Source: Paraglomus occultum (taxonomy: Eukaryota > Glomeromycota > Glomeromycetes > Paraglomerales > Paraglomeraceae). From it: 39,760 bases of DNA. Position numbers and translations under genes: made by a program. The notes beneath the pieces are model-generated. The model saw nothing but the letters and a program-made list of their open reading frames with translations, had not been told where the DNA came from and made no database searches. The first letter of the stretch is position 1. Each line of letters starts with the position of its first letter. Below, piece by piece: positions 6,405 through 35,402 of this stretch. The stretch is from assembly GCA_910592205.1 (NCBI GenBank), contig CAJVPJ010000150.1, positions 1-39,760 on the forward strand. Direction: 5' to 3'.

Positions 6405-7000
6405 TTATTTTTTGTCACGCGTACGAGTCTCACACAGCAAGCGTTCTACCGACATTTGAGTTCTAGTATGCTCTTCTTCTGCCTGCAGCTCCTCCCGGCT
6501 GGCTATGTTTGCAGTTCGATCTGGGAAGCTTGTCGAAACTCTAGTTTGCCTGGGACGGTGGACATGATGCATCCGCCTAACCGCATCATTGCCATTGACT
6601 AGACAGAAAGGTACTACTCTGAATAACGGTTAAAAAAAGAGAACTGTAGCGATACGTAAATCATACCTTCACGCCGTAATACATTCCGCCACCTGTATCG
6701 TAGTAAACTTGTCATGTTAATATATAGGCTGCAACGGATGTCGTGTAAAAACACATCAACACGATCACCTTTTAGAACACTGCTGGGCTGACTTGGTGCC
6801 CAAGATGCGGGAGATCATTACCCATTGGAGACCTCGCCTGTTGTAGAGATCAATTAAGACAGAGTCTTCCTACATGCCGATAATAATGGTAAGGGATAGA
6901 ATAGTAGTAGTAGCATTTACTGTATTAGTGCATAGTGTATCTAGGCAAAACGTCGCCAATTTTATAACGTGCATCATACCTGAGAGCACCATTTCCCCAT
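6405..7000 (-). CDS. Mini R2R3-MYB protein, type 1 (diverged copy A)
   Basis: Two-repeat MYB-like protein of 113 residues, probably nuclear and DNA-binding if functional. Exons (minus): 7000-6980, 6869-6769, 6692-6667, 6598-6405; the sum of 342 bases is an exact codon number with no stop. Repeat 1 is good: W4, W23 and W42 spaced 19 and 19, with GTKSAQQCSKRW. Repeat 2 is damaged: a clean in-frame loss of seven codons removes the block that reads RPFTTF in relatives, and the central tryptophan is Q (RPRQTRV). The end keeps SREELQAEEEHTRTQMS and then an extended tail. The 3' end sits under 200 bases from the TTC1 start. It is either a decaying gene that has not yet acquired stops or a one-repeat protein. 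This locus is the likely source of the TTC1-MYB duplications. Confidence 0.62.
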
Positions 7001-7067
7001 GCTCGTGAAAATAGGCGTGCTTTGAAAGCAAGTCCTTGATAGTGAACGGCAAGGCTATGCAAGCCTC

Positions 7068-7075
7068 ATTATATA
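7068..7075 (-). promoter_or_regulatory. TATA box of MYB copy A
   Basis: TATATAAT on the minus strand, about 75 bases 5' of the MYB start codon. An equivalent box occurs before the other MYB copies. Confidence 0.6.
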
Positions 7076-7089
7076 GAGCAAAATGCCAA

Positions 7090-7570
7090 GATTCGAATGC
7101 ATCAAACATATTAACCGTTCATGAGTTAGCAATGGCGTAGTTTGGTTGTTTCAAACACTGGCGATGTATATTACACAAGCAAGAACATTCTGTTTTACCG
7201 GGTAGGCCACGTGTAATCAAAATGATGTTATATCATCTAACACGATAGCTAATTATCCTATTAAATTGTGCCAGTCATATTAAAACAGTGCAACAAAGAA
7301 TAAGATACAAAGCACGTGAACCTGCACCCATTCCATTTTTGAACGTGACATACATGAAACTGATCATTATAATTCTGCAGACTTTTCTAGCCAGCTTGTG
7401 GTTTAATTGCCGATAAGACGAGATTATAAAGAAGTAAGGACTAAAATCTCGTCTTTCGGGAAGGGTGATCAATATAATAAGAACGAAATAATCATTGATA
7501 GAGTGCTCTTTAATACTGTCGATAGGCTTATAATCAATTATATTCGTTTGACTTGTTCCGTTATTAGGCA
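7090..7570 (+). pseudogene. Relic of the divergent ORF that accompanies type-1 MYB genes
   Basis: From ATGCCAAGATTCGAATG the plus strand follows the sequence of the ORFs at 15080-15466 (minus) and 27520-27816 (plus): TTCATGAGTTAGCAATGGCG, then TATATTACACAAGCAAGAAC. Deletions, insertions and a rearranged middle destroy the frame. The later part still matches the spacer next to those ORFs. Confidence 0.55.
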
Positions 7571-8105
7571 TTGAGAACGTTCAGTGAGATGTAGGGCTGT
7601 TTCTATCGCGTAACTGCAATAAACGAATGTAGCGCGAACAAAAAGTAATGTTGGTTTGATCTCTATTACACAAAAAACTTTGGTCCATTCTCGAGATTCG
7701 AACCTATTTTAATAGTTTAACTGCCACAAAACAGGTCAATACTTATGATCGAGAGTCGTTAGAAGGTTAATGAGGAAAGAATTAGCATGACAAAGCAGAA
7801 TTAGCTGAACGTATTTTTCGGTAAGACTTTCTTATTCCATAGTTCGTATTACAAATACAATCAGCTCCGCAAAAAGTTTGACATATAACACAATACCAAA
7901 ATAGGTAACGGCTAAAATGAGCGAGAGCCTTCTTCTAACAGAGGATAATTTCCAGTAAACCCGATACTCGGAAACCGATAATTCGCAAAATCGAGATTTT
8001 TTTCAAAACCGAAACACTTATAATGAAATATACTCGTAAAACCAATAACACATGTGATATAGATCTCGCAAACCGATAAACTCGATAAACCGGTGGGGGG
8101 TTTTT
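7571..8105. repeat. Duplicated spacer
   Basis: No gene. The segment at about 7640-7800 (CTCTATTACACAAAAAACTT, GTTAGAAGGTTAATGAGGA) matches 32440-32570 and, inverted, 14680-14800, so it is part of the duplicated unit. Here the type-2 MYB gene that should follow is missing. The stretch around 7950-8090 is rich in short AAACCGATA/AAACTCGATA-like runs. Confidence 0.5.
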
Positions 8106-8400
8106 TTTAGTGGTAGTGTAATCTCATGCAGTTGCAGCAGTATGGAGGGACGACTACTGCATCTACGACTTCATGGTCTCCTAATAACCACGGTTTGCCC
8201 GTCTTTCTCCGATTCGAACCAGGATTTGACAAATGAGTGGAGTGATAATTTTTAATTCGTAATAGTAAGTGCAGTATAGTGGAGCTGAATTTTGAAAAGA
8301 CAATCAAATTTAGTTTAATGATGTTGGTTGTTGCTATTCGTTTGTCAAGAACTACATTTGTGGCGGGACCCCTGCATTGGATTGCCATGTGTTTTAACCA
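8106..8400 (-). repeat. Dispersed repeat B, copy 1
   Basis: Matches 22320-22660 and, more weakly, 29560-29800: CATCTACGACTTCA-GGTCTC-TAATAACCA, then GGATTTGACAA-TGAGTGGAGTGA and GTGGTTGTTGC-ATTCGTTT. The minus strand is open for 93 codons here but not in the other copies, so I treat it as non-coding. Confidence 0.6.
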
Positions 8401-8529
8401 TAATCATAATCATGTGACTAAAGAAGTTTTGTAAGCAGATATCTTTCTTGTCGTACCATTGAAATCAAGGATATGTATAAAAAGTTTTTATTATTGTGAT
8501 ATGCAATCTCATTCAAATGTCAAACTCCT

Positions 8530-8760
8530 CAGTTTATTTGCGTAAACAAATGTCAGATATATTTGAACATACCATCGCTAGAGTTGTTAATAAAGTAATG
8601 TGCTTCGGGAGCTGCTCCAGGCCTAAACTGCGTTCGATATTGTCGTTAATTCGCAGTTAACTATCTTGAAATAGTTCTATAGCTATCACCACGTTTATGA
8701 CACTTTGACACCATGTTAACCCAACCTACATGGGAGTAACTTGTGTGATGATATTAATAT
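8530..8760 (+). repeat. Dispersed repeat C, copy 1
   Basis: Conserved block containing TGTCGTTAATTCGCAGTTAA, then CTATAGCTATCACCACGTTT and a GGGAGTA-CTTGTGTG tail. Copies lie at 10490-10640 and 23025-23270, in the same orientation. The core GTTAA-TTCGCAG-TTAAC is a short palindrome. Confidence 0.65.
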
Positions 8761-8869
8761 GAATAATTAAATAATTAAGTTAATGTTACCTCAAATGCAT
8801 TGGCGTATTATATATTACGCCATAACTATAAAGCACAAAAAACGCTACTACAAACTAAGAAGTAACAGC

Positions 8870-9170
8870 TGTCAATTCACTCTTTAGCCAAAGGAGGATA
8901 TGAGTTTCAAGCTTTTCATAACAACTGTTATTAACGTCTCACGGATAAGGAGTTCACTCTGCATAAAATCTTTTTTCAGCGTTTTTAATTAGAAATTGAT
9001 TTATTTTGTCACCTTTATCAAATTAAACAAAATATCATCAATAGCGTATTACAATAACTTTATTACGGATCAAAATTTCGGCGCAGGGGGGTTGGAGTTA
9101 AACTTATCATTCAACATTCACAACACTACTTAGGGTACAACATTTATAAACACATGTTTTATTTAACTTG
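8870..9170 (+). repeat. Dispersed repeat D, copy 1
   Basis: Includes ATTAGAAATTGATTTATTTT, AGCGTATTACAATAA and a G-rich GGCGCAGGGGGGTTGGAGTT followed by CTTAGGGTACAACATTTAT. The fuller copy is at 23460-23960; the last part recurs inverted at 12430-12540 and shortened at 30470-30540. Confidence 0.65.
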
Positions 9171-10900: not shown

Positions 10901-10924
10901 TTTTCATAATAACATTTCAGAAGA

Positions 10925-11045
10925 TGAGTTATGGACATTTTAGTCCGAATACGTGGTTCTCCCGCTTTCCTTTCTTCTCAATCACGAGGAAGTTTCTGGC
11001 CCACGGATACAATACAGCCGACTAACTGCATCGTGTTCAAAGTTA
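10925..11045 (-). pseudogene. Fragment of type-2 MYB last exon
   Basis: ATGGACATTTTAGTCCGAAT through CCGACTAACTGCATCGTGTT matches the last exon of the intact MYB gene at 24043-24621. It is truncated, has internal deletions, and no upstream exons follow. It has clearly lost coding capacity. Confidence 0.7.
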
Positions 11046-12429: not shown

Positions 12430-12969
12430 AGTGTTCAACGCAAATGTTGTACCCTAAGTAGCGTTGTTAATACTGAATCGTAAATTCAGCCCCAATCCCC
12501 CTGATCTGGAATTTCGACCCATTGTAATACAATATATTTATCATGAATCATCCTTGTTTCCAAAATGTTACAAGTGTACCATGAAAAAAACTCGAGATGA
12601 TTGACAGCTGCTAATTCTGTCGTACAGACGTAATAACAACGCTATCCAATGCGAGAAAAAAGAACAAAGAATGTATTACACAATGTGGTAATGTCTGACT
12701 AATTTAGTTCTTCAACTGTTTAAGCTGAACGGTATTCGGAAATCGTATGAACCAATAATAAAAATATTCCATAACAAGTAACTTCCATGTGGCTCAGACT
12801 GGAGTCAAAGACCGATGCGGTAAAGGTCTGGAGCCAGCTTCCGAAGCACTTTGTTAAACACAAATAAATGGGCGTTGTTATTTGATATGCGAGAACCACT
12901 AATCTATAGAGCCACGTCTGTAATAAAAGATTGATTGTAATAAAAAAAAAGTTTTTTTTTTTAATATAT

Positions 12970-13140
12970 CAAAATCTCAATAGTATGGATCAAAACATGC
13001 GGGGACCCCAACTTTTGTATCCAAAAAAATATCTGCAGGAGGTCGATTCGTTTCGGTCGTTATGGCTTTGCGGGCACTCCCATTCAAACCGCAAGTCTTC
13101 TTTTCTCTTTTCAGATTGAGAATGGAACGGAAATATGCGA
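12970..13140 (+). repeat. Gene-like repeat F, inverted copy
   Basis: CAAAACATGCGGGGAC, then CGTTATGGCTT-GCGGG-ACTCCCA, and TCTTTTCAGATTGAGAATG match the minus strand of 29980-30145. The last block looks like a 3' splice site followed by an exon. This copy carries frame-breaking differences. Confidence 0.55.
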
Positions 13141-13795
13141 AAGGATTGTTTGCACTAACACACCATTAAATTGTAGTTACGCAATAGAAGTTCCCTACAT
13201 ACTGAACGTTCTCAATGGTATCCTCGTCATTAAATATAATAGATTTCACCTTAATATAGTAGAACAAATGCATTAAACTGAGAGAATTTTAGCGGCATAA
13301 GTTAATAAAGATGAAACAAAGGACAAAGAAGAAAACCTTACTTCAGAGAGAAGAAGTTTGTCCGGTGTCTCGAAAGCTGAAATATGTCTTCTAATTGCTG
13401 AGCGCCTGGATAGTGTGAACAATTATATATTGCGTTAAACGACACATATGCATGCCCCATTGATCTAAGTACCACTAAGGCCTAGGCTCTCGCTCTTTGA
13501 CAATAACCATAACAAGCCCCTAAGATATGGTTAAACCGTTACCGTCAGATCGTCTCATTTAGGGTAAACCATTTTCCATTAAGGCATGTGTACCGGCTAA
13601 TCGTGAGAAACAAATATTGACTTGTGATCTTCATTGCAGGGTTACATTTGGCTATATTAGTAGAACGCAGATCTTGCATTCATTACCAAGCCAAGTCTTG
13701 CAGGCGCTATCCTCTTTTTTGTTCAGTATATTTTGCTATGGGTGATGTATTTGGGGGAAAACGATTCGCATGGCGCCAATATTATTGATCAAGCA

Positions 13796-13803
13796 TATAA
13801 ATA
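13796..13803 (+). promoter_or_regulatory. TATA box of MYB copy G
   Basis: TATAAATA, 50 bases 5' of the MYB start codon at 13846. Confidence 0.65.
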
Positions 13804-13845
13804 AGGCTGAATTGTCTTTCTGTTCGGATTGTCGTCGTCTTCGAC

Positions 13846-14440
13846 ATGGAGAAGTGGAGTTTGCAGGTGACATTATTCAACAAACTACAATAGCCGCAAA
13901 AACTCTTCCTAATACTTACATGATTTTACTACCGCCAAATTATTCATATGTAGGAAGACACCGCCTTGATTACTCTTTATCGTATGTACGGCCCCCAGTG
14001 GGTAACGGTCTCGCGTATCTTAGGTACAAAGTCTGCACATCAGATTTCACATAGGTGAGCGTGTTGACAATGTTTCTACATGATATCCGTTGTATCTTAC
14101 GTATTGACATAATTAATTATTACAACATTGATACAGGTGGCATAATGCACTGCGCCCTGGAAGTAAGTAACTCATTATTTCATGTCGTTCGCCATGCTTA
14201 CTTAGAATAAACGATAAACGTACCTTTTCTTCCATTCCCCTAGTCAACAAAGGACCGTTCACTACCTTTGAACATGATGCAGTTACTCAGCTATACCGTG
14301 TTCATGGCTCCAGGTGGGCTAGGATCTCTGCAAACCTCCCCGGTCGCACTCGAAACATGGTAAAAGCCAGTCGAGAGGAGATGCAAGCGGAAGAAGAAAG
14401 TATTCGAGCGAAGATGTCAATAGCTCGTATTCTAAACTGA
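13846..14440 (+). CDS. Mini R2R3-MYB protein, type 2 (copy G)
   Basis: Intact 114-residue protein that is essentially two MYB/SANT repeats, so a likely DNA-binding nuclear protein. Exons: 13846-13866, 13954-14054, 14137-14162, 14244-14440 (21+101+26+197 bases); introns 87, 82 and 81 bases, GT-AG. Repeat 1 (residues 4-46) has W4, W23, W42 at the canonical 19-residue spacing, with YGPQWVTVSRIL and KSAHQISHRW. Repeat 2 (about 54-95) has F55 and W74 with HGSRWARISANLPGRTRNMVK; the usual third tryptophan is lost (SREE). A charged tail, EEMQAEEESIRAKMS, ends it. No activation domain or signal is visible. The start is the only ATG before W4 and follows a TATA box. It is the mirror partner of copy D in the inverted repeat, which keeps the same exon lengths. 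Known: MYB repeats bind DNA. Inferred: that this one does. Confidence 0.85.
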
Positions 14441-15075
14441 ATAACTATCATGTCAAGAATGTACGCCTGGTGACGTAAATATATGCCCATATGCTCCTGC
14501 ATTGTGCCAATAATATGTCAGGATAATAACTAAGTACAATTAATAATGAGTATCTCCAGCGACTATTGGAAAGCAGTAATACTGTAATAACACATACATC
14601 TTGCAATAATAATAATAAAGTTTTCCCGTTGTTGTAGTTACTCACAATCTTTGTTTGACACTGCCAAGCCGCAAGTCTTTTCTCCTCTCATTAACCTTCA
14701 AACCAAGCCGGCGAATCTCGATCATAAGCATTGACCAAGTTGCGAACGGTTTTGTCTGCTTTTAAACAGTAAAATATTAGTATGGGTCCGATCTCGAAAC
14801 AAAGTTTTTTGTACAATAAAGATCAAACCAAGATTACTTTTTATTTGCGATACATGTCATTACATTAATTACAGTTACGCGATAGAAACAGCCCTACATA
14901 AATAGGACAGAAATAAATGTTCTCAATGCCAATATAATTGATTATAAGCCTACCGATCAGGCAGAAGAAACAGCAACGAGCGAAAACTCTATTGAATCAA
15001 TAGTCTTATTAGATTGACCATCCTTCCCAAAGAAGACGAGATTTTAGTCCTTACTTATTGGCATTAAACCATGAG
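14441..15075. repeat. Duplicated spacer (inverted copy of 27830-28430)
   Basis: Includes GCAATAATAATAATAAAG (matching 28218 region inverted), CTCATTAACCTTCAAACC and GTTACGCGATAGAAACAGCC, which also occur around 27985-28150 and 32380-32540. No gene is supported; the two overlapping short minus-strand frames at 14302-14645 run antisense to the MYB last exon. Confidence 0.6.
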
Positions 15076-15079
15076 CTGG

Positions 15080-15466
15080 CTATTTTGAGCTCTTGTCAAT
15101 CATTCGTTCTTTAGGAAAGTCTGCAGAATTATAATGGTCAGTCTCAAACTGGAATGGCCGTACACATTTGAACAAACTATTCTTATTACGCTGGTTCACA
15201 TACTTTGCATCTGTATGTTTTTGATGCACTGACAGTCCAAAAGAATGTTCTTTGCTTGTGTAATATATCCTCAATGTTTGAAACAACGGAACTATGCCAT
15301 CCGCTAACTCATGAATGGTTAATGTCGTTTGATCCTGCATTCGAATCTTGGCATTTGCTTCTAATATAATGAGACTTGCATAGCCTTGCCGTTCACTTTC
15401 AAGGACTTGCTCCCAAAGTTCATGATCATGGGGACACGGAGCTCTCAGATATGATGCGCGCGTCAT
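15080..15466 (-). CDS. Unknown 128-codon ORF divergent to type-1 MYB
   Basis: Unrecognised protein. It starts within the first exon of the adjacent MYB pseudogene (opposite strand) and reads away from it. A conserved core is HELADGIVPLFQTLRIYYT, and the C-terminus has RPFQFETDHYN, SADFPKERMIDKSSK then a stop. The plus-strand relative at 27520-27816 keeps the core and, in one frame, the same C-terminus with conservative changes and the same stop, which argues that this frame was once coding. Copies at 7090, 31740 and 35455 are broken. The real start may be the internal M in the KIRMQDQ region, since upstream sequence overlaps the MYB leader. No signal peptide, no membrane segment, no known domain. 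Alternatively it is a chance open frame in a repeat. Confidence 0.4.
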   Translation of the reverse strand: MTRASYLRAPCPHDHELWEQVLESERQGYASLIILEANAKIRMQDQTTLTIHELADGIVPLFQTLRIYYTSKEHSFGLSVHQKHTDAKYVNQRNKNSLFKCVRPFQFETDHYNSADFPKERMIDKSSK

Positions 15467-15830
15467 AAAATTGGTGACGTTTTGCCTAATACACTAAATA
15501 CAGTAAATGCTACTATTACTATCCATCTTTCCCTTATTGTCGGTAGAAAAACTCTGTCGTATTGATCTCTATAATGTGCGGGGTCTCCAATAGGTAACCG
15601 TTTCCCGTGTCTTAGGTAATAAGTAAGGCTGCTGCTCAGTGTTGTAAAAGGTGAAAGTGTTGATGTTGTGTTTTTACATGATATCCGTTCTACGTATTGA
15701 CATGATGAATTACTACGATACAGGTGGCGGAATGTATTACGGCCTGAAGATATGGTTTACTTATCGCCACTCTTTTTCAAATGGAAGACCGTTCACTACC
15801 TTTGCAAATGATGCGGTTAAGCGGCGGCTC
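15428..15830 (+). pseudogene. Type-1 MYB pseudogene (copy H)
   Basis: All four exon positions are recognisable: 15428-15448 (W4 changed to R, donor GT changed to AT), 15547-15650 (one-base deletion and a TGG-to-TAG change), 15724-15749 (RWRNVLRPE-like microexon, donor destroyed) and from 15779 (RPFTTFANDAV intact). After that the exon jumps to unrelated sequence. Gene is dead. Confidence 0.8.
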
Positions 15831-15939
15831 GCAAATCGAACTGTACACAATCATATGGCGCAATCATTTTCTGCAGGGAAAGGAGTGACGTTTCATTTCT
15901 ATTTTGTGCAATTATCGCAATCCACAGAATATTCCTCGG

Positions 15940-16012
15940 TCTCTGAGCATCTCGGAAGCAATTGAAAATTATGTTCGGAAGCAAACGAATACAAGACAAA
16001 GCATAGCATAAT
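15940..16012 (+). pseudogene. TTC1 5'-end relic (inverted copy)
   Basis: Reverse complement of TTGTATTCGTTTGCTTCCGA plus flanking bases matches TTC1 exon 1 around 6115-6150 (codons for EELCSEANEYKTQ). It is truncated on both sides and lies 3' of the MYB pseudogene, the same arrangement as at the intact TTC1-MYB locus. Confidence 0.65.
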
Positions 16013-17300
16013 TGTATAGTATTTACCTAACTTGCAGTAGAATTTTGAAGATGTTCAATTCCTTTATTAAACTAGTATCCACATCCGTTACATCGTGTAA
16101 TCATCAGTTCGTAGTTATATTTGCCTCGCTAAGTAATTTTTGGTAATAAAAAATTGTTTAGTCGGTGGCTCGTTTGGTAATATTGTCAACATCATTCCAT
16201 AACGAATAAAATTGATCGTATTCTTGTCTCGCGATTAACCGAGTGGCAAATATGATAATTAATTATCAACACATGATATATCCCTTACCAAGACCCCAAG
16301 TCGAGAATTGTTTCACATTACTAGGATAATAACATCGATGATTAGTATTAGTGTACATGACTCGGTTTAAAAGCCTATGTTAAAGGTCACTTACGACGAG
16401 ATAAGCCACGCACTTTCGAAATGGTAGTTAAACCCTTAACCGAGTCAAGGGTCATTACGCTCTCTCGGGACAGCATTAACCATGTACGACAGTTTGTATT
16501 CTCAAACTAAGCCGTTACGCGTAAATACATTTGACCACCTCTCTCAGTGTGCATCAACAAAAATGTGGATAACCAAATTTAGAAACGCTTTGTATCAATA
16601 TAATAATAACGACACATGTACAGTAATTTCTTCGTAGACCCTGGTTAGCCTATGATCCGTTCAAGTACTTTCCATTAAACTAAGCATTAAGCAGTTTAAT
16701 AGGGCAAATATTACTAAGATATGTAGCAACAGAGTTAATATTGCTTATGTCAAAGTATGTTATATAGTGTTATATTGACATAGGTCTGTGAAATGGTAGC
16801 ATAAAACATAAGTAGAGTGTTGAAATAATTAAAAATTCAAATATCAAATAAAGAGCATGAACTTGTATCAGGAGAAATTGAGGAAAATGTATAAAATGTA
16901 GTCTTCATTATTATTACTGTATTATTTTAAAGCATTTTATTGGATAAGTGTCATGTAACGTACAAGAAAACACACGCGACATACCCAAGGGAATTCGGAG
17001 CAGTACCACAATAGATATAATACGATACAAAGCACGCCGAGGATACCAAAAACGCGAGTGGGTTTCAAAAACGCAAATCTAAATGGGTGGTTTTAGGTAA
17101 TTTATTAGAATCTGCAAAACAAAATTCGGAAATATTTATTTTTAGATGACCTTTACCATCCCCCCGTGTTACATAACTTTCGTCCAATTGTGTATTGCTA
17201 CACATAAGAGAGTGCTCGCATAACATTCTTGAGACTTAGCGTCTTCCGTAAATCTATTTAACAATTAGTGACCTTAACAGGGCTTACTCTACTCACAATT
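16013..17300 (-). repeat. Inverted copy of repeat E and its flank
   Basis: 16680-17300 is the inverted copy of 9300-9960 and 25505-26200. 16080-16560 matches 26275-26710 inverted (GAGTCAAGGGTCATTACGCT, CACGCACTTTCGAAATGGTA). No coding capacity is conserved. Confidence 0.7.
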
Positions 17301-17514: not shown

Positions 17515-18064
17515 ACCTGTTTCAGCTGGTAAAAGTGTAAGCGATTGAGTAATTCGGTTGACGTTTCTACCAGGACTTGGTAGTCCATGAATTTCCGCAT
17601 AGTTTTCGAGAAAGTTTTTCACAGATGTAGCAACGGTTATATCAATGGTTATTTTGGTTTTCCATCGCAGTATTCATATTACCATGAATACGTGGCATTA
17701 TACCATTCGCTGCTAGATGGTTTCTGACGTTTTCGAAGTGCGTGCGACCAATTCCCTACATATTAAGATACGTTTGCTGACAAAGCGGCGTATTGCGATC
17801 TCAATAATAAAAAGTTCTTTTATACGCGTTTTCTTTTTAAGACGTCGACTGGCAGTTATTTCTCCGCCATTCATCGCCTTCAACTGGGCCATTAAAAATA
17901 TATCTTGTTCGGATTTAGAGAGAGCTGAAACGCTTCACGTAATTCAGCAAACCTTTCTCTCGGAATCTTTTTTGAACAACCATAATTGCAACCTAACTAA
18001 GAAACGGATTGTTTTTTTGTATTCGGTGGAACCATTGTATTCGTTATTATTCATATACGGATAG
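17515..18064 (-). mobile_element. Decayed transposon protein fragment, copy 2
   Basis: Minus-strand pieces in shifting frames: RFRERFAELREAF, LKAMNGGEITASRR-LKKKTR, then GIGRTHFENVRNHL-AANGMIPRIHGN, then NFLENYAEIHGLPSPGR and TLLPAE. This order is shared with 700-1262 and resembles the N-terminal region of transposon proteins with an 'NG..PR.HGN' helix and an 'NYAE..GLP.PGR' segment. At least three frame breaks and several stops make it non-functional. It ends about 280 bases from the stop of the NTPase-nuclease gene. I cannot see terminal inverted repeats or a target-site duplication. Confidence 0.6.
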
Positions 18065-24042: not shown

Positions 24043-24621
24043 TTAATTCAAAAGATAAATTATGGACATTTTAGTCCGAATATGTTGCTCTTCTGTCCTC
24101 CTTTCTTCCCGGCTATTTTTAATCATGGTCCGAGTGCGATCAGGAAGTTCTTCAGAAATCCTGGCCCACCTGGGGCCATGGATATGGTACAGCCGACTAA
24201 CTGCATCGTGTTCAACGGCAGTAAGCGGGGTTGTATTGACTAGAGAATGAAAGGTGGTATGGTTATTACGATGTAAAAATAGAGTTGTAACAACACGTAA
24301 ATTTGAAAGACTACATACTTCCTGGGCGTATATTTCGCCATCTGTATTAACATAATAAACGTTGTGTCAAATCGTAGGATACGACAATATTACGACAAAT
24401 ATTATTTAAAAACATGATCAACACGCTTACCTGTGTGAACACTGATGAGCAGACTTGCCTAAAATTCGTGATATATCTAGCCACCGCGGACCGTATAGAC
24501 GATAAAGACCAACCAGGGCAGTGTCTTCCTACATACATATAAGCGAATAAGAAATAGCAATAGTAATAGTAAAATTATGTGCATAGTACATATGTCATCT
24601 TACTGAAGAGCTCCACACCAT
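24043..24621 (-). CDS. Mini R2R3-MYB protein, type 2 (copy C)
   Basis: Intact 111-residue two-repeat MYB-like protein. Exons (minus): 24621-24604, 24528-24431, 24341-24319, 24239-24043 (18+98+23+197 bases, 112 codons with stop); introns 75, 89 and 79 bases. Each of the first three exons is exactly one codon shorter than in copies D, E and G, so the phase survives. Repeat 1 has W3, W22, W40, with LYGPRWLDISRILGKSAHQ and RWRNIRPG. Repeat 2 has L and W at the first two core positions, HIHGPRWARISEELPDRTRTM, and a KNSREE end. It is the most divergent type-2 copy and the only intact MYB inside the inverted-repeat spacer. Expected role: sequence-specific DNA binding; targets unknown. The fragment at 10925-11045 is its closest relative in the window. 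Confidence 0.84.
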
Positions 24622-25504: not shown

Positions 25505-26200
25505 TTAAATAGCCATCTATAGTGAGTAAAGTAAGCCCTGTTAAAAGTCACTAATTGTTTAAATAGATTTACGGAAGACGCTAAAATTATGCGAGCACTC
25601 GCTTATGTGTAGCATTACGACAAAATCCATAAAGTTATGTAACATAGTAATAGGGGATGGTAGAACCATCTAAAAATAAACATTTCCAAATTTTGTTCTG
25701 CAGATTCTAATAAATTACCCCTATTTAGATTTGCGTTTTGGAACCCACTCGCATTTTTTGTATCCTCGGCGTGCTTTGTATCGTATTGTATTCGGTCAAA
25801 AACCTATTGTAGCACTGCTCCAAAATTTCCATGGTATGTTGCGTGTGTTTTCTTGTACGTTACATGACACTTATTCAATAAACTGATAATGAAGAAGACT
25901 ATAGTTTGATTGAACAAAGTTAGATTACATTTTCGTCAATTTTTCCTGATACAGGTTCATGCTTTTGATTGATCTTTTGAATTTTTATTTTCTAAAATTA
26001 TTTCAACACACTACTTATACTTTATGCTACTATTTTACGCGCCTATGTCAATGTTGTGTGTCAAATCGGAAAGGTACAGTGAATTAGTAACACGATATAA
26101 CATAAGCAATATTAATTCTGCTGCTACATAATTTAATTATATTTGCCTTATTAAACTGCTTGATATTTAATTTAATGAAAAATACTTTAGTACTTGAACA

Positions 26201-26800
26201 GATCATAGGCTAGCCAGTTCTACGAAATGAAATGTGTAGTCGGTACAAAACGTTTTTTGATCTTTTGTTTGTATGCACACTGAGAGAGGTGGTCAATGCA
26301 TTTACGCGTAACGGCTTAGTTTAAGAATACAAATTGTCGTACATGGTTAATATGTCGACTCAATGGTCACGAGAGAGCGTAATGACTCTTGACTCGGTTA
26401 AGGGTTTAACTACCATTTCGAAAGTGCGTGGCTTATTTCATCGTAGACAACAGTTAGTGATTTTTGAAATAGGGTTTTAAATCGAGTCATGTACACTAAT
26501 CATCGATGTTATTATCCTAGAGTAGGAAAAATTCTTGGTCGTAGATCAACTTGGTATTTTATCGGTTGGGGTCTTGGTAAGAGATGTATAATGTGTTGAT
26601 CCGTTATGAACAATGTTGACAATATTACCAAACGAGCCTCCGACTTTAAACAACTTTTTTATTACCAAAAATTACTTAGTGAGGCAAATATAACTGCGAA
26701 CTGATAATTACAGATAGGTTCAGAATGGATAGTTTATAAGTGATATAATAAAGGGATCGAACATTTTCAAAATTCTACTGCGCAAGTTAGGTATATACTA
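26201..26800. repeat. Duplicated spacer
   Basis: 26275-26445 and 26500-26710 match 16080-16560 inverted. CGAGTCATGTACACTAATCATCGATG also occurs, diverged, at 17455 and 30610. No gene. Confidence 0.55.
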
Positions 26801-26807
26801 TATAATT

Positions 26808-26990
26808 ATGCCATGCTTTGTATTGTATTCGTTTGCTTCCAAACATAATTTCCAATTTCTTCGGGAGTGAACGAGGATATTTCGTCCGAGGAACATTCTG
26901 TGGATTCTAATCTGTTGTACAAATACGTCACTCCTTTCTCTGTAGAAAATAATTGTGCATTCTTTCCATATTACGTCACACCTATTATTA
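26808..26990 (-). pseudogene. TTC1 5'-end relic (direct copy)
   Basis: TTCGTTTGCTTCCAAACATA, CAATTTCTTCGGGAGTGAAC and TCCGAGGAACATTCTGTG match TTC1 exon 1 and its start region (6120-6230). The start codon region, several codons and the rest of the gene are lost. The upstream TTTCCATATTACGTCA of the real gene (6298-6311) is kept at 26968-26983. Confidence 0.75.
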
Positions 26991-27029
26991 TCAATCTAAT
27001 CTATATATTAATATATATTAATATCGCCA

Positions 27030-27438
27030 GATGATTGTCGGAAATTCTAATCCGCCTGGACCTAACCGCATCATTTTCAAAGGTAGTAGAACGGTCTTCC
27101 ATTGACTAGTAGAAAGGTACCATTCTGAATAACAGTTGAAAACGAGAGCTGTAGCGATATGTAAATCATGTCTTCAGGCCGTAATACATGTATCGTAGTA
27201 ATTCATAATGTCAATATGTAGGATACAACGGATATCATGTAAAAACACAACATCAACACTTTCACTTTTTAGAACTCTGCTGAGCAGACTTGTTACTCAA
27301 GGCACGTCGTAGAGACAGAGTTTTTCTACCGACAATAAGGGATGGATAGTAATAGTAGCATTTGCTGTATTTAGTGTATTAGGCAAAACGTCGCCAATTT
27401 TATGACGTGCATCATACCTGAGAGCTCCATGTCTCCAT
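27030..27438 (-). pseudogene. Type-1 MYB pseudogene (copy I)
   Basis: Exon 1 (27438-27418) is intact and reads M-E-T-W-S-S-Q with a GTATG donor. Exon 2 (about 27326-27262) has lost roughly 35 bases, the microexon (27190-27167) has lost its acceptor, and the last exon (27105-27030) is cut off after the N-D-A-V-R block. A TATATAAT box remains about 70 bases upstream (27504-27511). Gene is dead. Confidence 0.8.
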
Positions 27439-27519
27439 GATTGTGGAAATAGGCGTGCTTTGGGAGCAAGTCCTTGAAGTGAACGGCAAGGCTATGCAAG
27501 TGTCATTATATAGAAGCAA

Positions 27520-27816
27520 ATGCCCAAGATTCGAATGCAGGAGATCAAACGACATTTAACCGCTCATGAGTTAGCAGATGGCGTAGTTCCGTTGTTTCGA
27601 ACATTGAAGATATATTACACAACAAAGAACATTTCTTTGGACTGTCAAAAGCATGATATTAAATACAGATGCAAAGTATGTGAACCAGCATTACAAAAAA
27701 ACTTATGTTCAAATATGTACGGCCATTCCAGTTTGAAACTGACCATTATAATTCTGCAGACTTTTTTAAAGAACGAATGGTTGATAAGAGCTCAAAATAG
27801 TCAGCTCGTGGTTTAA
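27520..27816 (+). CDS. Divergent unknown ORF, second copy
   Basis: Unrecognised 98-codon frame, head-to-head with the type-1 MYB pseudogene and 80 bases from its start. The core HELADGVVPLFRTLKIYYT matches the minus-strand ORF at 15080-15466. After that core, a one-base shift relative to that ORF gives a different C-terminus here, while the old frame still encodes RPFQFETDHYN and SADFFKERMVDKSSK before the same stop. So the annotated C-terminus is probably not ancestral, and this copy is likely a frameshifted pseudogene. Confidence 0.33.
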   Translation: MPKIRMQEIKRHLTAHELADGVVPLFRTLKIYYTTKNISLDCQKHDIKYRCKVCEPALQKNLCSNMYGHSSLKLTIIILQTFLKNEWLIRAQNSQLVV

Positions 27817-27829
27817 TACCAATAAGTAA

Positions 27830-28438
27830 GAACTAAAATCTCGTCTTCTTTAGGAAGGATGGTCAATATAAGAAGATTATTGATTCTCAATAATAGAGTT
27901 TTCGCTCGTTGCTGTTTCTTCTGCCTGATTGCAGGTTTATAATCAATTAGATCAGCATTTAAAATGTTTATTTCTGTCCCATTTGTGTAGGGCTGTTTCT
28001 ATCGCATAACTGTAATTAATACGATGGCATGTACCGCGAATGAAAAAGTGATGGAAAACCCTTTGTTTCGAGATCAATATTTTATTGTTTAAAAGCAGGC
28101 AAAACAGTTCGCAACTTGGTCAATGCCTATGATTGAAGGTTAATGAGGAGAGGAGAAAAAACTTGCGGCTTGCAGTGTCAAACAGAGATTGTGGGTAACT
28201 ACAACCACGGAAAAGCTTTATTATTATTATTGCAAGACGTATTTCCATAATCATATGCCAGATCCATATTGAAGCTTATGTTCTGTATTACAGTATTACC
28301 ATAGTCGCTGGAGATATGTCGGTTTAATTATACTTATTAATTATTATCTGACATGTAACACAATGCGGGTTACAATGCATGAGCATCTAAGCATATATGT
28401 GCATATGTTTACATCACCAGGCGTGTCACATGGGGATT
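27830..28438. repeat. Duplicated spacer
   Basis: Matches 14441-15070 inverted (ATCTCGTCTTCTTTAGGAAGGATGG and TATCGCATAACTGTAATTAA regions, also at 32125 and 32395). No gene. Confidence 0.6.
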
Positions 28439-29033
28439 TCAGTTTAGCAGACCAGCTATTGACATCTTCGCTCGAATACTTTCTTCTTCCGCTTGCATCT
28501 CCTCTCGGCTGGCTTTTACCATATTTCGAGTGCGACCAGGGAGGTTTGCAGAAATCCTCGCCCACCTGGGGCCATGAACACGGTATTGCTGACTAACTGT
28601 ATCATGTTCGAAGGTATTAAATGGCTCTTTGTTGACTAGGGAATGAAGAAAGGGTTATTATTTATTCTAAATAAGCATGGCGAACGGCATGAAATAATGA
28701 TTTGAATAGTTACATACTTCCAGGGCGCAGTGCATTTTGCCACCTGTATCAACGTTGTAGTAATTTATCATGTCAATACGTAAGATACAACGGATGGGGT
28801 GATGTAAAAAAAACATTGTCAACACGCTTACCTATTTGAACACTGATGAGCAGACTTGGTCTCTAAGATACGGGAGATCGTTACCCACTGGGGGCCGTAC
28901 ATAAGGTAAAGAGTAATCAAAGCAGCGTCTTCCTACATACGAATAATCAAGTAAGAATTGGCGATAGTAAGTAGTAGGAATGTTTTGAGCAATGGTACAT
29001 CTGTCATCTTACTTGAGAACTCCATTTCTCCAT
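28439..29033 (-). CDS. Mini R2R3-MYB protein, type 2 (copy D)
   Basis: Intact 114-residue protein made of two MYB/SANT repeats. Exons (minus): 29033-29013, 28932-28832, 28743-28718, 28635-28439 (21+101+26+197 bases); introns 80, 88 and 82 bases. W4, W23, W42 of repeat 1 are 19 residues apart; MYGPQWVTISRIL and KSAHQCSNRW form its recognition helix, and the microexon supplies RWQNALRPG. Repeat 2 has F55, W74 and HGPRWARISANLPGRTRNMVK, with S-R-E-E where the third tryptophan would be. The tail is acidic and basic mixed (QAEEESIRAKMS). Very close to copy G, its inverted-repeat partner. The leader carries a 16-base tandem repeat and a TATA-like box. Confidence 0.85.
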
Positions 29034-29039
29034 GTTGAA

Positions 29040-29085
29040 GCCGAACAGCGACAATGCCGAACAGCGACAATGCCGAACAGCAATC
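29040..29085 (-). repeat. 16-base tandem repeat in the leader of MYB copy D
   Basis: Plus strand GCCGAACAGCGACAAT twice, then GCCGAACAGCAATCC. Starts a few bases from the start codon. Copy E has only related single units (CCGAACAGCAAAAG, CCGAACAAGACAAT). Confidence 0.85.
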
Positions 29086-29089
29086 CAGC

Positions 29090-29099
29090 CTTTTTATGC
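29090..29099 (-). promoter_or_regulatory. TATA-like box of MYB copy D
   Basis: CATAAAAAGG on the minus strand, about 60 bases 5' of the start codon; the equivalent of the TATATAAG box of copy E. Confidence 0.5.
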
Positions 29100-29559
29100 A
29101 TGTGCCTGATCAATAAGATGGCGCTATGCTAATCGTTTTTCCCCCCAATACATCTCACACACAAAATATACCGAGCGCATTAACATATACCCTTGATATT
29201 AGATTGGTCGATAATGAACACAAGACTCGTGGACGGCGCTGGGCCTGCAATGAAGATCACACGTCAATTTTTGTTCCCACGATTACCCACATGGCCCTAA
29301 ATCTGACGGTAACGGTTTAACCATCTTTAGAGGCTTTAATTTTAGCGTCAAAGAGCGAGAGCCTCTTCCAACAGAGGCCTTACTGGCATTTAGATCAAGC
29401 TCAGCAATGTCAGATTGTGCTTGGATAACACACGTTGCTCTTTTAAAAGACATATTTCAGCTTGCGAGACACTGGACAAACTTCTTCTCTCTGAAGTAAG
29501 GTTTTCTTCTTTGTCTTTGGGACGCCTTTGTTTCATTTTTACTGCTCATCTCTATCTAT
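29100..29559. repeat. Duplicated MYB upstream region
   Basis: 29230-29530 matches 13310-13600 inverted: GACGGTAACGGTTTAACCAT, CAAAGAGCGAGAGCCTCTTC and TCTCTGAAGTAAGGTTTTCT. No gene. Confidence 0.6.
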
Positions 29560-29880
29560 CCTTTGACAATGAGTTGGAGTGACAATTTTTTATTCGTAAA
29601 AGTGCAGTCTACGTGTATAGTAGGAGAGATTACTAACCGTTTAAAGCTAAAATAAATGATGTCTTATTGGGTACTTGAAATGTGCCCGATTATATAGGAG
29701 GAAATCGTTCGAAAAGACAATCACAACAGTTCAGTATTTTCCCATGCATATAATTGAATGATGTGGTTGTTGCCATTCGTTTCGGTATGTAGGGAACTTT
29801 CTGTTGCGCAACTACAATTTAATACTGTAATAGCATGTGAGTACAAACAAAAACTGATCTTCCAATACTATTTATAGTTT
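29560..29880 (+). repeat. Dispersed repeat B, copy 3
   Basis: GAGTTGGAGTGACAATTTTT through GATGTGGTTGTTGCCATTCG, as at 22480-22640 and 8230-8330. Confidence 0.6.
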
Positions 29881-29904
29881 GTATACTAATAATTTAAAGA
29901 ACTA

Positions 29905-30145
29905 CTAGCGACCGTAGCAGTAAACCAATATAAAATGTCCCGGGATATCGTTTTTCTTAACTTTTGTTTTTTTGCTATCCTTTCGCATAAGTTCATTCTC
30001 AATCTGAAAAGAGAAAGAAGACTTGGTTGGGAGTACCCGCGAAGCCATAACGATCGAAACGCCTCGGTCAATAATCGAACCCCTGCGGATATCTTCTTGC
30101 ACACAAAAGTTAAAGTCCCCGCATGTTTTGATGCATACTATTGAG
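29905..30145 (-). repeat. Gene-like repeat F, direct copy
   Basis: Open minus-strand frame of 65 codons to the stop at 29905 containing FSFQIENELMRKDSKKTK and PGHFILVYCYGR. A TCTCTTTTCAG|ATTGAGAATG junction looks like a splice acceptor. Copies at 12970-13140 (inverted) and, partly, 22740-22830 share the junction and the PG-FI/PGTF block but not an open frame. Probably the remnant of another small multi-exon gene carried by the repeat unit; identity unknown. Confidence 0.45.
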
Positions 30146-31122
30146 ATTTGTGTTATAAAAAAATTTTTTTGTTATACTCACAAACCGTGGAAAGATTAGT
30201 GGTTCTCGCATGTCAAATAACAATGCCCCGTCCATTTGTGTAAACAAAGTATTGTGCATGGAACTAACTTGTTATAAATATTTATCACACGATTCACATT
30301 ATGTAATACATTCAGGGAGTCTCTTTGTTCTTTTTTCTCCACCATGCGCTGTATGCATAATGGCGTTATCATTACGTCATTAAATACAACAGCCGTCAAT
30401 TCACTCTTTTCAAGTAGCACTTTTAACATTTCGGAAATAAAGGATGAGGCGTTTACTCTGCATTGTATTAAATCGATCAAAATTCCAGAGCGGGGTTGAA
30501 TTTACAATTCAGTATTAACAGCACAACATTTATGATTTGAAAGTGCCTCGTCGTGACTAAGCTTAGATAGACATCGGTTAATATATGCTCTTCACACTTA
30601 CGATTCTAGACCGAGTCATGTATACTAATCATCGATAGAGTATGTCGACCGGTGGATTAACTATCAGTTGGGCCTTGGTAAGAAAATAATTAACTGTCGT
30701 ATTCGCCACTCGGTTAATCGCGAGACGGGAATGCCCGATCAACCTTATCCGTTATGCGAACTGATGATTTGACAATATGACGGATAAGTTCAGAGAGAAT
30801 GGATACTAGTTTATAAGTGATATAATAAAGGAATCAAACGTTCCACTATTGCCCGCAGCCCCGATCCTCGGAATGTTTCGGTGAACAGCATTTTGAGAGT
30901 ATTATTATTGGAATACGGAACACCCTCAGAGAAATCGTAGTTTATAATATGACATCAATGAATGTTTGGTAAATGCTATACGATTGTGTCATGCTTGTAC
31001 AAATGAAAATGAAACGTCTCTCTCCCTTCCCTGTAGAAAATGCAGAACTTTCCATATTATACGTCAGATTTATTTATCTAATTATGTGATTGCCTTATCG
31101 GGTATTTTCCCACGCCAATTCG
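30146..31122. repeat. Duplicated spacer with a faint TTC1 upstream relic
   Basis: 30470-30540 is a short copy of repeat D. 30545-30640 (CGTCGTGACTAAGCTTAGAT) matches 17385-17470. 31040-31070 keeps GAACTTTCCATATTA-ACGTCAG, the region just upstream of TTC1, but the TTC1 codons are no longer legible. No gene. Confidence 0.5.
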
Positions 31123-31644
31123 TCATTCATCACTCACACTCTGTGCTATTGACATTTGGGTTCTAATATGCTTTTCCTCTGCCTGCGTGTCCTCCCAGCT
31201 GACTATATTTGCAGTTCGATCAGGGAAGATTCTAGTCCCGCCTGGGACCGTGGACATGATGCATCATTTTCATTGACTAGATAGAAAGGTACTATTCTGA
31301 CTAACGGTTGAAAGAAGAGAGTTGTAGCGATATGTAAATCATACCTAATACATTCCACCACCCTGTATCGTAGTATTTTATCATTTCAATACGTAGGCTA
31401 CAACGGATATCGTGCAAAAACACATCAACACATTCACCTTTTAGAGCAGACTTGGCTTGCCTAGGATACGAGAAACGGTTATCCATTGGAGACCCCGCAA
31501 GTCGTAGAGATCAAATAAGACAGAGTCTTCCTACGTACCGATAATGAGGGTAAGGAGATAGATAGTAATAGTAGCATTTAATGTATTTAGTGTATTTCGG
31601 CAAAACGTCGTCAATGCATCATACTTGAGAGCTTCATTTTCTCC
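31123..31644 (-). pseudogene. Type-1 MYB pseudogene (copy K)
   Basis: Exon 1 near 31644-31624 has lost W4. Exon 2 (31530 to about 31437) begins EDSVLFDLYDLRGLQW but ends in a premature stop after a deletion. The microexon is recognisable. The last exon (31276-31123) lost about 40 bases and is out of frame, although a downstream stretch still spells SWEDTQAEEKHIRTQMS in one frame, with the third repeat-2 tryptophan. Gene is dead. Confidence 0.8.
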
Positions 31645-31729
31645 GTTATTATGGAAATAGGCGTGCTTTGAAAGCAATACCTTGAAAGTGAACGGCAAGG
31701 CTATGCAACCCTCATCGTATGCCAAGATT

Positions 31730-32778: not shown

Positions 32779-33397
32779 TCAGTTTAGTAGACGAGCTATT
32801 AACATTTGAACTCGAATACGTTCTTCTTCCGCTTGCATCTCCTCCCGACTAGCTTTTACCATGTCTCGAGTGCGATCAGGAAGGTTTGCAGAAATCCTCG
32901 CCCACCTGGGGCCATGAACACGGTATTGCTGACTAACTGTATCATGTTCGAAGGTAGTGAATGGCTCTTTGTTGACTAGGGGGAATGGAAGAAAAGGTAC
33001 GTTTATTATTTATCCTAAGTAAGCATGGCAAACGACATGAAATAATGGGTTACTTACTTCCAGGGCGCAGTGCATTATGCCACCTGTATCAAAGTGTAGT
33101 AATTTATCATGTCAGTACGTAGGATACAACGGATATCATGTAGAAACGTTGTCAACACGCTCACCTATGTGAACACTGATGCGCAGACTTGGACTCTAAG
33201 ATACGGGAGACCGTTACCCACTGGGGGCCGTACATACGGTAAAGAGTAATCAAGGCAGTGTCTTCCTACATACGAATAATCGAGTAGGAATGGGCGATAG
33301 TAAAACCATGTAAGTATTAGGAAGAGTTTTTGCGGCTATTGTAGTTTGTTGAATAATGGTACAGCTGTCATCTTACCAGAGAACTCCATTTCTCCAT
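32779..33397 (-). CDS. Mini R2R3-MYB protein, type 2 (copy E)
   Basis: Intact 114-residue two-repeat MYB-like protein. Exons (minus): 33397-33377, 33265-33165, 33083-33058, 32975-32779 (21+101+26+197 bases); introns 111, 81 and 82 bases. W4, W23, W42 and W74 are all kept; repeat 1 reads MYGPQWVTVSRILESKSAHQ, the microexon RWHNALRPG, repeat 2 HGPRWARISANLPDRTRDMVK. The tail EERIRVQMLIARLLN is slightly divergent. Closest to copies D and G; it belongs to the third, more eroded direct copy of the duplicated unit. As for its relatives, DNA binding is expected but unproven. Confidence 0.85.
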
Positions 33398-33462
33398 GGT
33401 AGTCTTACTTTGAAGCCGAACAGCAAAAGCAAAAACAATGCCGAACAAGACAATGTCGACTT

Positions 33463-33470
33463 CTTATATA
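33463..33470 (-). promoter_or_regulatory. TATA box of MYB copy E
   Basis: TATATAAG on the minus strand, about 70 bases 5' of the start codon at 33397. Confidence 0.65.
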
Positions 33471-34260
33471 TGCAAAAGTGAAGCCATGGGATACTGGATC
33501 AATAACATTGGGCGTTAAGTTATGCACATCACACAAATGCAGACAAAAGGGAGAGATGTGGGAGTGATAATGGGGGAAATTATTAAAGCCATTCGCTTGC
33601 ACCACAATGAGTACGTTATAGAACACCAATTAAAGCCCACAATAACCAACTTAATTCATTTACCCAGTCAAGGGATCAACATGCAGTGAGGATCAGCACG
33701 TGAATAAGATTAGCCGGCCGGTACGCCATGCCTTATTGAAAATGGTTTACCCAGATGGTGGATGGGCTTAATACGGCTGAACGTCATAGAAGGCATTGAA
33801 ATCTCTTACGCTAAGGGCTTTTGCAAGTTTTGGTGATCGTCAAAGGGTGAGAGTCTCTTCTGACAGAGGATGCTTTCGTCGCTTCATGATTTCCTTATAT
33901 CAAGAGACAACTATCTTACCTTATCATGCAAAATGGTTGCCTCAGCAATGTCACTATTGTAACTGACCAGCTACTTGCTCTTTTAAACACCATATTTCGT
34001 CTTTCTATATACGGGCAAACATCTCTCTCTGAAATAGACTCTTTTTTCTTTCTCTTTGTAGCGTCTCTGCTTCATCTCCATTCTGCTAACATTCCGCCAT
34101 TTTTAATGCTTTCGTTCTGAAACGTGCTTACATTTCAAGATGCCATATACTATATTTAATGACGGCGATTTCATTATCTCTAGGATAGCCTGTATTCGCC
34201 GATGCAATGCACCATATAATTAAATACATCGGAAAATGAATACGGTTAAATGCAAGTCTA
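33471..34260. repeat. MYB upstream spacer and repeat G copy 2
   Basis: 33830-34040 resembles 29350-29530 (GAGAGTCTCTTCTGACAGAGGA, CTCTCTCTGAAATAGACTC). 34040-34260 is the second copy of 21706-21970. No gene. Confidence 0.5.
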
Positions 34261-34791
34261 CGTCTATAATAAGAAAACTAAATATAGTATCAATAAAATT
34301 GTGCATATTTTATGTGTTCTTTCCTATTTATACGAGGAAAGTGGAATTGGGATTTCTGTTACTTATATTTATTCTGTGGAAGTCCACACGATCATAAAAA
34401 TACACATTCTAGAATTACACATAATAATATTCTTTGTAAATCATAATAGAGTCCACACAATCATAAAGTATTATTCTAAAAATACATTTTGCATAATAAT
34501 TAATACATAAACCCCCGATCGAGATCTTATGCTTACGTAATAATCGTGGTATGGCAAGATTTTGACGTAGAGTCATATACAGTATGTGAAAGTTCCTGTT
34601 CGTAGAAACGTTACTCTATTCACGCATTTGACGTGAAAGAAAACATCAAATGAAAGAAAAAAGTTTTCTCAGAGCGAACTGAGTATTTCCAACTCGAACC
34701 TATCCCTGTCCAACTAAATGTTTACGTCTTGAAGACGATCCAAACTGGCTAGCAACCACATCCTCGGTAGTCGAAGCAACAGGCATAGCAA
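34261..34791. other. Unique AT-rich spacer with a 69-base duplication
   Basis: AGTCCACACGATCATAAA (34381) and AGTCCACACAATCATAAA (34450) start two diverged tandem units. The 86-codon open frame 34250-34510 runs through this AT-rich duplication and I reject it. Confidence 0.5.
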
Positions 34792-35402
34792 CTATTTTTC
34801 GGGGGTTAGTAGACGCGCTACCGACATTTGCACACGAATGCGGTTTAGCTCTGCCTGTGTCTCCTCCCAGCTGTCTTTTATCATCCTTGGAGTGCGATTA
34901 GGGAAAGCGGCCGAACAAATTCTCTTCCATCTGGGTCCATACTCTTTGTACAGTTGTCTGACTAGATCATGTTCAAAAGCAGTAAACGGTCCGTTGTTAA
35001 CTGTAAAACGGTATGGTTATCATTTGAATGTGCGTAACAGGTTGTAGCAAAGTGAAAAAAGGGAGTTGTAACATATGTAAATCTGGAGGGGGAATGTAGA
35101 ATACATACTTCCAGGGCGTAGTACATTATACCATCTGTATTTACATGAAATATCAATATCTAGGATGCAGTAATGGTTTGCAACAGCTATTATATACATT
35201 ACCGTGTAGCACATTGATGAGCTGACTTGGTGCGTGTCTTGCGGGCTATTGCTACCCATTGAGAGCCGCTCACGTTGTAGTGTTGAATCAATAAGGAGTC
35301 ATCCTACATGCCGATAATAATGAGTGAGGGGATATTCAGACAAAACGTTGCGTTGCTATTCTGTAACAAATATCTTACCAGAGGTCTCTGTTGCTCCATC
35401 AT
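34792..35402 (-). CDS. Mini R2R3-MYB protein, type 1 (copy F)
   Basis: Intact and the most ancestral-looking type-1 copy. Exons (minus): 35402-35379, 35303-35203, 35134-35109, 35000-34792 (24+101+26+209 bases, 119 residues; the second ATG at 35399 would give the family's 21-base first exon). Introns 75, 68 and 108 bases. Repeat 1 lacks the first tryptophan (E-Q-Q-R) but keeps two, as GSQWVAIARKTRTKSAHQC and RWYNVLRPG. Repeat 2 is the best in the window: PFTAFEHDLV, EYGPRWKRI, FPNRTPRMIKDSWEE with the third-position tryptophan that other intact copies lost. The tail ends LLTPEK. A relic of the divergent ORF lies upstream, as for other type-1 copies. Confidence 0.85.

What the first reader, a model, noticed from the sequence alone, without database searches (positions are those of the whole stretch)
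6405..35402. Expanded family of minimal two-repeat MYB genes: six open copies, three pseudogenes and a fragment in 29 kb
Ten related loci encode or once encoded proteins of only 111-119 residues that are almost entirely two MYB repeats. The family was found by joining short exons, because no copy has one long frame. Repeat 1 shows the classic W-19-W-19-W spacing, with KSAHQ-(C/I)S-RW in the recognition helix, and repeat 2 has HG-RWARIS-LP-RTR-MVK. A locally amplified set of stand-alone DNA-binding domains without activation regions could act as competitors at the sites of larger MYB factors, but that role is inference. Conventional gene finders would probably miss most copies.
Basis: partly seen in the sequence, partly recalled or inferred. 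Interest (0 to 1): 0.85.

Follow-up and report, generated by a model that had tools for sequence, protein, structure and literature searches.

The report
Mini-MYB gene family with terminal peptide
A stretch of DNA from the root-symbiotic fungus Paraglomus occultum holds a locally multiplied set of very small MYB-type DNA-binding genes, part of a genome-wide family whose proteins mostly end in the same short peptide, which resembles the peptide yeast uses to call in a gene-silencing partner, so they may be miniature repressors.

Summary
Ten related loci are real. Six give open four-exon models of 111-119 aa. Deposited Paraglomus occultum proteins equal copies C, E and G letter for letter. The models match Pfam MYB and c-Myb R2R3; a predicted model of copy G has two MYB repeats. 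Corrections: copy A has a broken second repeat, and the three pseudogenes are downstream partners of C, G and I in a duplicated two-gene unit. The family is genome-wide and clustered; MYB enrichment in this species is already in print. The proteins are not bare DNA-binding domains: 27 of 38 own-genome models carry M-[SA]-[ILV]-x-x-h-h (h = I, L, V or M), 20 of them within one residue of the stop, against 2 of 120 other listed MYB proteins, one of these Paraglomus-like. The spacing matches the EH1-like peptide of yeast MATalpha2 that binds Tup1, and a Tup1-like gene is present. I favour compact Tup1-recruiting repressors over passive competitors. Tup1 binding, expression and DNA targets are untested.

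The parts
6405..7000 (-). Copy A, open frame of 113 aa (exons 6980-7000, 6769-6869, 6667-6692, 6405-6598); repeat 2 degenerate; doubtful gene
10905..11040 (-). Copy B, exon-4 fragment similar to copy E
13846..14440 (+). Copy C, 114 aa, 4 exons; ends MSIARILN; identical to deposited protein P0002 (11114_t)
15428..15870 (+). Copy D, pseudogene of the A type, downstream partner of C
24043..24621 (-). Copy E, 111 aa, 4 exons; ends MSIIYLLN; identical to deposited protein P0006 (11117_t)
27040..27438 (-). Copy F, pseudogene of the A type, downstream partner of G
28439..29033 (-). Copy G, 114 aa, 4 exons; ends MSIAGLLN; identical to deposited protein P0001 (11118_t)
31143..31646 (-). Copy H, pseudogene of the A type, downstream partner of I
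32779..33397 (-). Copy I, 114 aa, 4 exons; ends MLIARLLN
34792..35402 (-). Copy J, 119 aa, 4 exons; ends MSVARLLTPEK
12848..17299 (+). Duplicated block with C and D; inverted relative of 25519-30250
25519..30250 (-). Duplicated block with G and F; inverted relative of 12848-17299

Best explanation
The window holds one cluster of a family, found here only in Paraglomus, of miniature two-repeat (R2R3-like) MYB proteins. Shown: gene structure, MYB homology and predicted fold, duplication as a two-gene unit with decay of the second gene, a genome-wide family, and a conserved C-terminal peptide (R-I-R-x-[KQ]-M-S-I-x-R-L-L-N-stop) in most models. Inferred: the two repeats bind specific DNA, with different copies preferring different sites, and the terminal peptide docks on the WD40 propeller of the Tup1 corepressor as the MATalpha2 N-terminus does, so each protein is a compact active repressor.
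For: MYB homology by sequence and fold. Strict terminal motif in 27 of 38 own-genome models, looser form in 31 of 38 by the listing. Within 15 residues of the end, the looser form is in 14 of 18 Paraglomus proteins against 6 of 120 other listed hits, and the strict form in 13 of 18 against 1 of 120; P0010, 72% identical to copy I over 57% of it, is among those others in both. After thinning at 90%, 50% and 40% identity, 31 of 39, 9 of 12 and 3 of 5 tails hold it, against shuffled means of 0.37, 0.046 and 0.024. A whole-genome pattern for M-x-[IV]-x-x-L-L-N-stop has 17 matches against 2 for the reversed control, 11 of the 17 in mini-MYB loci; with the hydrophobic pair one codon upstream there are 4 against 4. 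The motif persists when the linker differs, and a reading frame beside a larger MYB ends MSIDTLLN. Spacing equals MATalpha2 MNKIPIKDLLN, where positions 4, 9 and 10 matter for repression. Tup1 candidate: Tup_N exon over the cut-off and a WD40 exon colinear with 1erj Tup1.
Against: No binding, expression or repression data. The motif is short. The first EH1 position is normally aromatic (Ile in MATalpha2) and is Met here. Similar I-x-x-L-L peptides bind other partners (recalled). Seven of 38 own-genome models lack even the looser motif, and 4 of 18 database Paraglomus proteins lack it near their end. The scan profiles included tail columns, which favours finding models that have the tail. Only E and G of the window's copies match the genome pattern. 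In copy G's model the peptide lies at the end of a long helix, with confidence falling to 55, so it could be structural.
Confidence: 0.42

Rival explanations
1. Passive competitors: the two repeats occupy the sites of larger MYB factors and nothing is recruited.
For: Short proteins; larger multi-repeat MYB frames exist in the genome (C657, C91, C392, C22).
Against: A conserved terminal peptide would not be needed. Positions aligned with c-Myb recognition-helix residues vary among copies, so shared sites are not assured.
Confidence: 0.2
2. Activators: the I-x-x-L-L peptide is a coactivator-docking motif of the KIX or LxxLL kind (recalled class), so the proteins are compact activators.
For: The hydrophobic spacing I-x-x-L-L also fits that class (recalled).
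Against: The motif starts two residues earlier with a Met (required by the pattern used), followed by Ser/Ala in 28 of 32 tails, and its surroundings are basic (R at -3 in 24 of 32, K/Q/R at -1 in 32 of 32) rather than acidic.
Confidence: 0.13
3. Structural tail: the peptide extends the last helix of repeat 2 and serves folding or pairing of copies, with no cofactor.
For: Predicted helix 86-113 runs through the motif. The top fold matches include a Trichomonas Myb3 entry whose title mentions a unique C-terminal feature.
Against: The motif stays at the C terminus when the linker grows from 13-17 to 24-25 residues and, in an unjoined downstream frame beside a larger MYB, after a long tail.
Confidence: 0.15
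4. Mostly decaying duplicates: segmental duplication scattered copies and few are functional.
For: D, F, H are broken, B is a fragment, A is degenerate; intron differences between C and I are no larger than exon differences.
Against: dN/dS 0.24 (C-G), 0.25 (C-I), 0.32 (G-I) (Fisher p 7e-5, 9e-5, 0.006); other pairs of C, E, G, I, J 0.20-0.32; four-exon layout in 19 of the 30 rows, distant copies included; relatives in P. brasilianum.
Confidence: 0.1

Closest known systems
c-Myb / B-Myb R2R3 DNA-binding domain (1h88, 1h89, 1h8a, 1a5j)
   Same: Two three-helix repeats, repeat order and linker; 37% identity over 90 columns and rmsd 1.2 to 1h89
   Different: Whole protein is 111-119 aa; residues aligned with c-Myb recognition-helix positions differ (H for K in repeat 1 of C, E, G, I, J; A for N in repeat 2 of C, G, I), and the third Trp of repeat 2 is Arg in C, E, G and I
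Trichomonas vaginalis Myb2/Myb3 two-repeat domains (3osf, 3osg, 3zqc)
   Same: Close predicted fold, TM 0.75-0.84
   Different: 28-32% identity; terminal peptide not compared
EH1 / MATalpha2-Tup1 interaction peptide
   Same: Hydrophobic residues at 0, +2, +5, +6, and Asn at +7 as in MNKIPIKDLLN
   Different: At the C terminus, on a MYB protein; Met at the first hydrophobic position; Tup1 binding untested
Plant R3-MYB small repressors (CPC/TRY type; recalled)
   Same: Very small MYB proteins, with repression proposed here
   Different: Plant ones have one repeat and work through bHLH partners (recalled); here two repeats and a terminal peptide

Membership tests
R2R3-type MYB proteins | Two tandem MYB repeats by profile | tested here: met
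   PF00249 with two passing stretches in C, E, G, I, J and one in A
R2R3-type MYB proteins | Predicted fold of two three-helix repeats similar to c-Myb R2R3 | tested here: met
   Copy G model pLDDT 87.4; 1h89 E 1.5e-7, rmsd 1.2
R2R3-type MYB proteins | Conserved DNA-contacting residues of both recognition helices | tested here: inconclusive
   Columns 36, 40 and 91 vary in 26 chosen models; which residues contact bases in c-Myb is recalled
R2R3-type MYB proteins | Sequence-specific DNA binding | not testable with these tools
   none
EH1 / MATalpha2-type Tup1-recruiting factors | Hydrophobic residues at 0, +2, +5, +6 | tested here: met
   27 of 38 own-genome models strict; 32 of 40 scored tails loose
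EH1 / MATalpha2-type Tup1-recruiting factors | Aromatic first position (animal EH1; Ile in MATalpha2) | tested here: not met
   Met there in copies A, C, E, G, I and J; the pattern used requires Met
EH1 / MATalpha2-type Tup1-recruiting factors | Tup1/Groucho corepressor present in the organism | tested here: met
   C610: Tup_N exon 33.8 bits over cut-off 28.7; WD40 exon colinear with 1erj, 197.8 bits
EH1 / MATalpha2-type Tup1-recruiting factors | Physical binding to Tup1 and repression | not testable with these tools
   none
Plant CPC/TRY R3-MYB repressors | Single MYB repeat (recalled) | tested here: not met
   Two repeats
Transposon-borne MYB-like protein (PIF/Harbinger type; recalled) | Partner transposase and terminal repeats | not tested
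   Duplicated blocks were compared; no transposase search was made

The most novel reading that the evidence does not exclude
Paraglomus has evolved a large set of near-minimal repressors: two MYB repeats plus an eight-residue Tup1-docking peptide at the extreme C terminus, with recognition helices diversified between copies, multiplied in local clusters in an obligate plant symbiont.
Probability: 0.33. Interest if true: 0.7.

Novelty: new variant of a known kind. Interest (0 to 1): 0.5.

Why it matters
If the terminal peptide recruits Tup1, these would be unusually small complete sequence-specific repressors for a eukaryote, and they would tie the MYB enrichment already reported for this early-branching mycorrhizal fungus to a testable mechanism. 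The peptide also gives a simple handle (last eight codons) for finding and testing the family.

Tried and rejected
Mosaic origin of copy I (5' part like C, last exon like G): a one-breakpoint permutation test gave 7656 of 10000 shuffles at least as strong, so rejected. Bare DNA-binding domain: weakened by the tail. Relatives in other mycorrhizal genera: the third protein search found 505 hits, of which the best 120 are listed; among the named ones the only Glomeromycotina are Paraglomus. Most rows carry no name, so absence elsewhere is not shown. Paper searches for MYB families in Paraglomus or Glomeromycotina (one search listed 15 of 182 papers) and for EH1/Tup1 motifs in fungi or MYB proteins (one search listed 20 of 22) showed no description of this family in their listings; only the passages and sections cited were read. 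Dropped rows: 5 of 47 models had no anchor and 2 partial models were left out. In one search the 26 models were chosen by hand among those with an alignable tail, so their motif conservation is partly by selection; A3 was also hand-picked. The motif of L034 and L035 lies on a fifth exon that the scan added and may be wrong; in L046 (also five exons) a tail of 23 residues follows it. Of the six pattern matches outside the mini-MYB loci, two were inspected (C12 and C96): C12 adjoins a larger MYB, C96 is a short frame with no visible relation; four were not.
Full report
Identity and gene models. The deposited proteins place the window in Paraglomus occultum, an arbuscular mycorrhizal fungus: hits P0001, P0002 and P0006 are named from that species, lie on a 39760-base contig and equal copies G, C and E letter for letter. 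The window is contig C150 of a 32.3 Mb assembly of 1408 contigs. Six copies give four-exon models with GT-AG introns at matching positions, 111-119 aa. A splice-aware profile scan finds the same genes with scores of 172 to 367 against at most 15.7 in 12 reversed nulls; for copy A it picks another last acceptor.

What they are. Pfam Myb_DNA-binding matches C, E, G, I and J at 2e-17 to 2e-22 and A at 5.7e-8. The best solved relatives by sequence are c-Myb and B-Myb R2R3. A structure prediction for P0001 (identical to copy G), on 13 aligned proteins, has mean pLDDT 87.4 and six helices in two repeats, the last running from residue 86 to 113. Foldseek's top matches are c-Myb R2R3 and Trichomonas Myb2/Myb3 complexes with DNA.

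How the cluster arose. Blocks 12848-17299 and 25519-30250 are inverted relatives at about 75% identity. Copies C, G and I each have an A-type copy starting about 1.6-1.75 kb downstream (D, F, H), and all three of these are broken. The surroundings of A match those of H, and also those of D and F, so A looks like the surviving member of a fourth such pair; that is inference. A lacks the start of repeat 2 and its RWARIS core. B is an E-like exon-4 fragment. In a tree of 45 proteins C, E, G and I form a supported P. occultum-only group (100/99), while J groups with a P. brasilianum protein with weaker support (84/73).

Selection. Nei-Gojobori dN/dS is 0.24 for C-G, 0.25 for C-I and 0.32 for G-I, with Fisher p of 7e-5, 9e-5 and 0.006. 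The other pairs among C, E, G, I and J give 0.20-0.32. Against this, introns of C and I are 194/211 identical and exons 307/345 (sums over), so with introns as yardstick that pair shows no exon constraint; for G-I and C-G the introns (180/211 in both) differ more than the exons (318/345 and 308/345).

The family in the genome. With copy I as query there are 38 exon-level matches at E <= 0.001; the Pfam model gives 128 exon-level matches at E <= 0.01, many in clusters on C10, C175 and C57, though larger multi-repeat proteins are among them. Fetching 47 stretches and scanning with two profiles gave 38 own-genome models including the six in the window, two of them covering repeat 2 only. Both profiles included tail columns, so models with the tail were easier to find. 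The published genome paper says in one sentence that P. [quoted passage not shown] I do not know whether the deposited proteins come from that paper.

The terminal peptide. In 27 of 38 own-genome models M-[SA]-[ILV]-x-x-[LIVM]-[LIVM] is present, 20 of the 27 within one residue of the stop; a looser form is in 31 of 38 (by the listing). Models without the looser form: L044, the second L017 model, L019, two of L023, L032 and L045. Of 18 Paraglomus proteins from the database 13 have the strict and 14 the loose form within 15 residues of the end; of the 120 other listed proteins, 1 and 6, one of them (P0010) a Paraglomus-like fragment. Anywhere in the protein the others have 2 strict and 9 loose. 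Tails beyond the last recognition helix hold the loose motif in 32 of 40 scored models; 25 of these 32 end exactly at the eighth position. Thinned sets give 31 of 39, 9 of 12 and 3 of 5 against shuffled means of 0.37, 0.046 and 0.024. Shared ancestry means these counts are not independent. A test that does not depend on the models: a pattern for M-x-[IV]-x-x-L-L-N-stop matches the 32.3 Mb genome 17 times against 2 for its reversed control; 11 of the 17 lie in mini-MYB loci, two of these in the window (E and G). With the hydrophobic pair shifted by one codon the count is 4 against 4. In 26 hand-chosen models columns 107, 109, 112, 113 and 114 are as conserved as the MYB core while 110 is free, which is the EH1 spacing; the choice of models favours this.

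Comparison with known motifs. The homeodomain review states that MATalpha2 positions 4, 9 and 10, which when mutated relieve repression, have the same spacing as EH1, with Ile in place of the aromatic residue (PMC4901127, section 9 read). A table gives the MATalpha2 N-terminus as MNKIPIKDLLN (PMC10163088, section 20 read, other passages seen). Aligned on it, the Paraglomus consensus M-S-I-x-R-L-L-N matches the pattern at 0, +2, +5, +6 and +7, with Met for Ile at 0. Copley 2005 reports EH1-like motifs both N- and C-terminal to various DNA-binding domains (PMC1310626, passages). A Tup1 candidate exists on C610: a Tup_N exon over the family cut-off and a WD40 exon colinear with 1erj Tup1 over 168 residues; eight other WD40 chains score higher in that search but their best stretches are shorter.

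DNA specificity. By the alignment, residue 36 (H, K, R, Y or Q) and residue 40 (E, Q, D, H and others) face c-Myb K and E in the first recognition helix, and residue 91 (N, A, D, S or T) faces N in the second. That these c-Myb residues touch bases is recalled. Different copies may therefore read different sites; this is inference.

Verdict. The new element is the conserved terminal peptide, which turns 'bare DNA-binding domain' into a testable compact repressor. Binding, expression and targets remain untested.

Noticed in passing
18345-20519 (-): Single 724-aa open frame with no Pfam family above its cut-off; one 43% relative on C655 and 17 further partial matches, several with stops. A possible expanded family of its own.
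   Followed up: partly
L061 (C12:66800-68800): A larger two-repeat MYB is followed by a separate frame that ends MSIDTLLN-stop, the same kind of terminal octapeptide.
   Followed up: partly
L023, L032, L045 (C175, C976, C1193): A second group of short two-repeat MYB models without the terminal peptide, well separated in the tree.
   Followed up: partly
1056-1182 and 17526-17655: A 130-base repeat at 74% identity outside the paired MYB genes.
   Followed up: no
29040-29081: A 16-base unit repeated 2.6 times without mismatch just upstream of copy G's start.
   Followed up: no
2642-6303 (-): Exon-like frames of ordinary genes (recalled resemblance to an adaptin and to a TPR protein) beside the cluster; not searched.
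   Followed up: no
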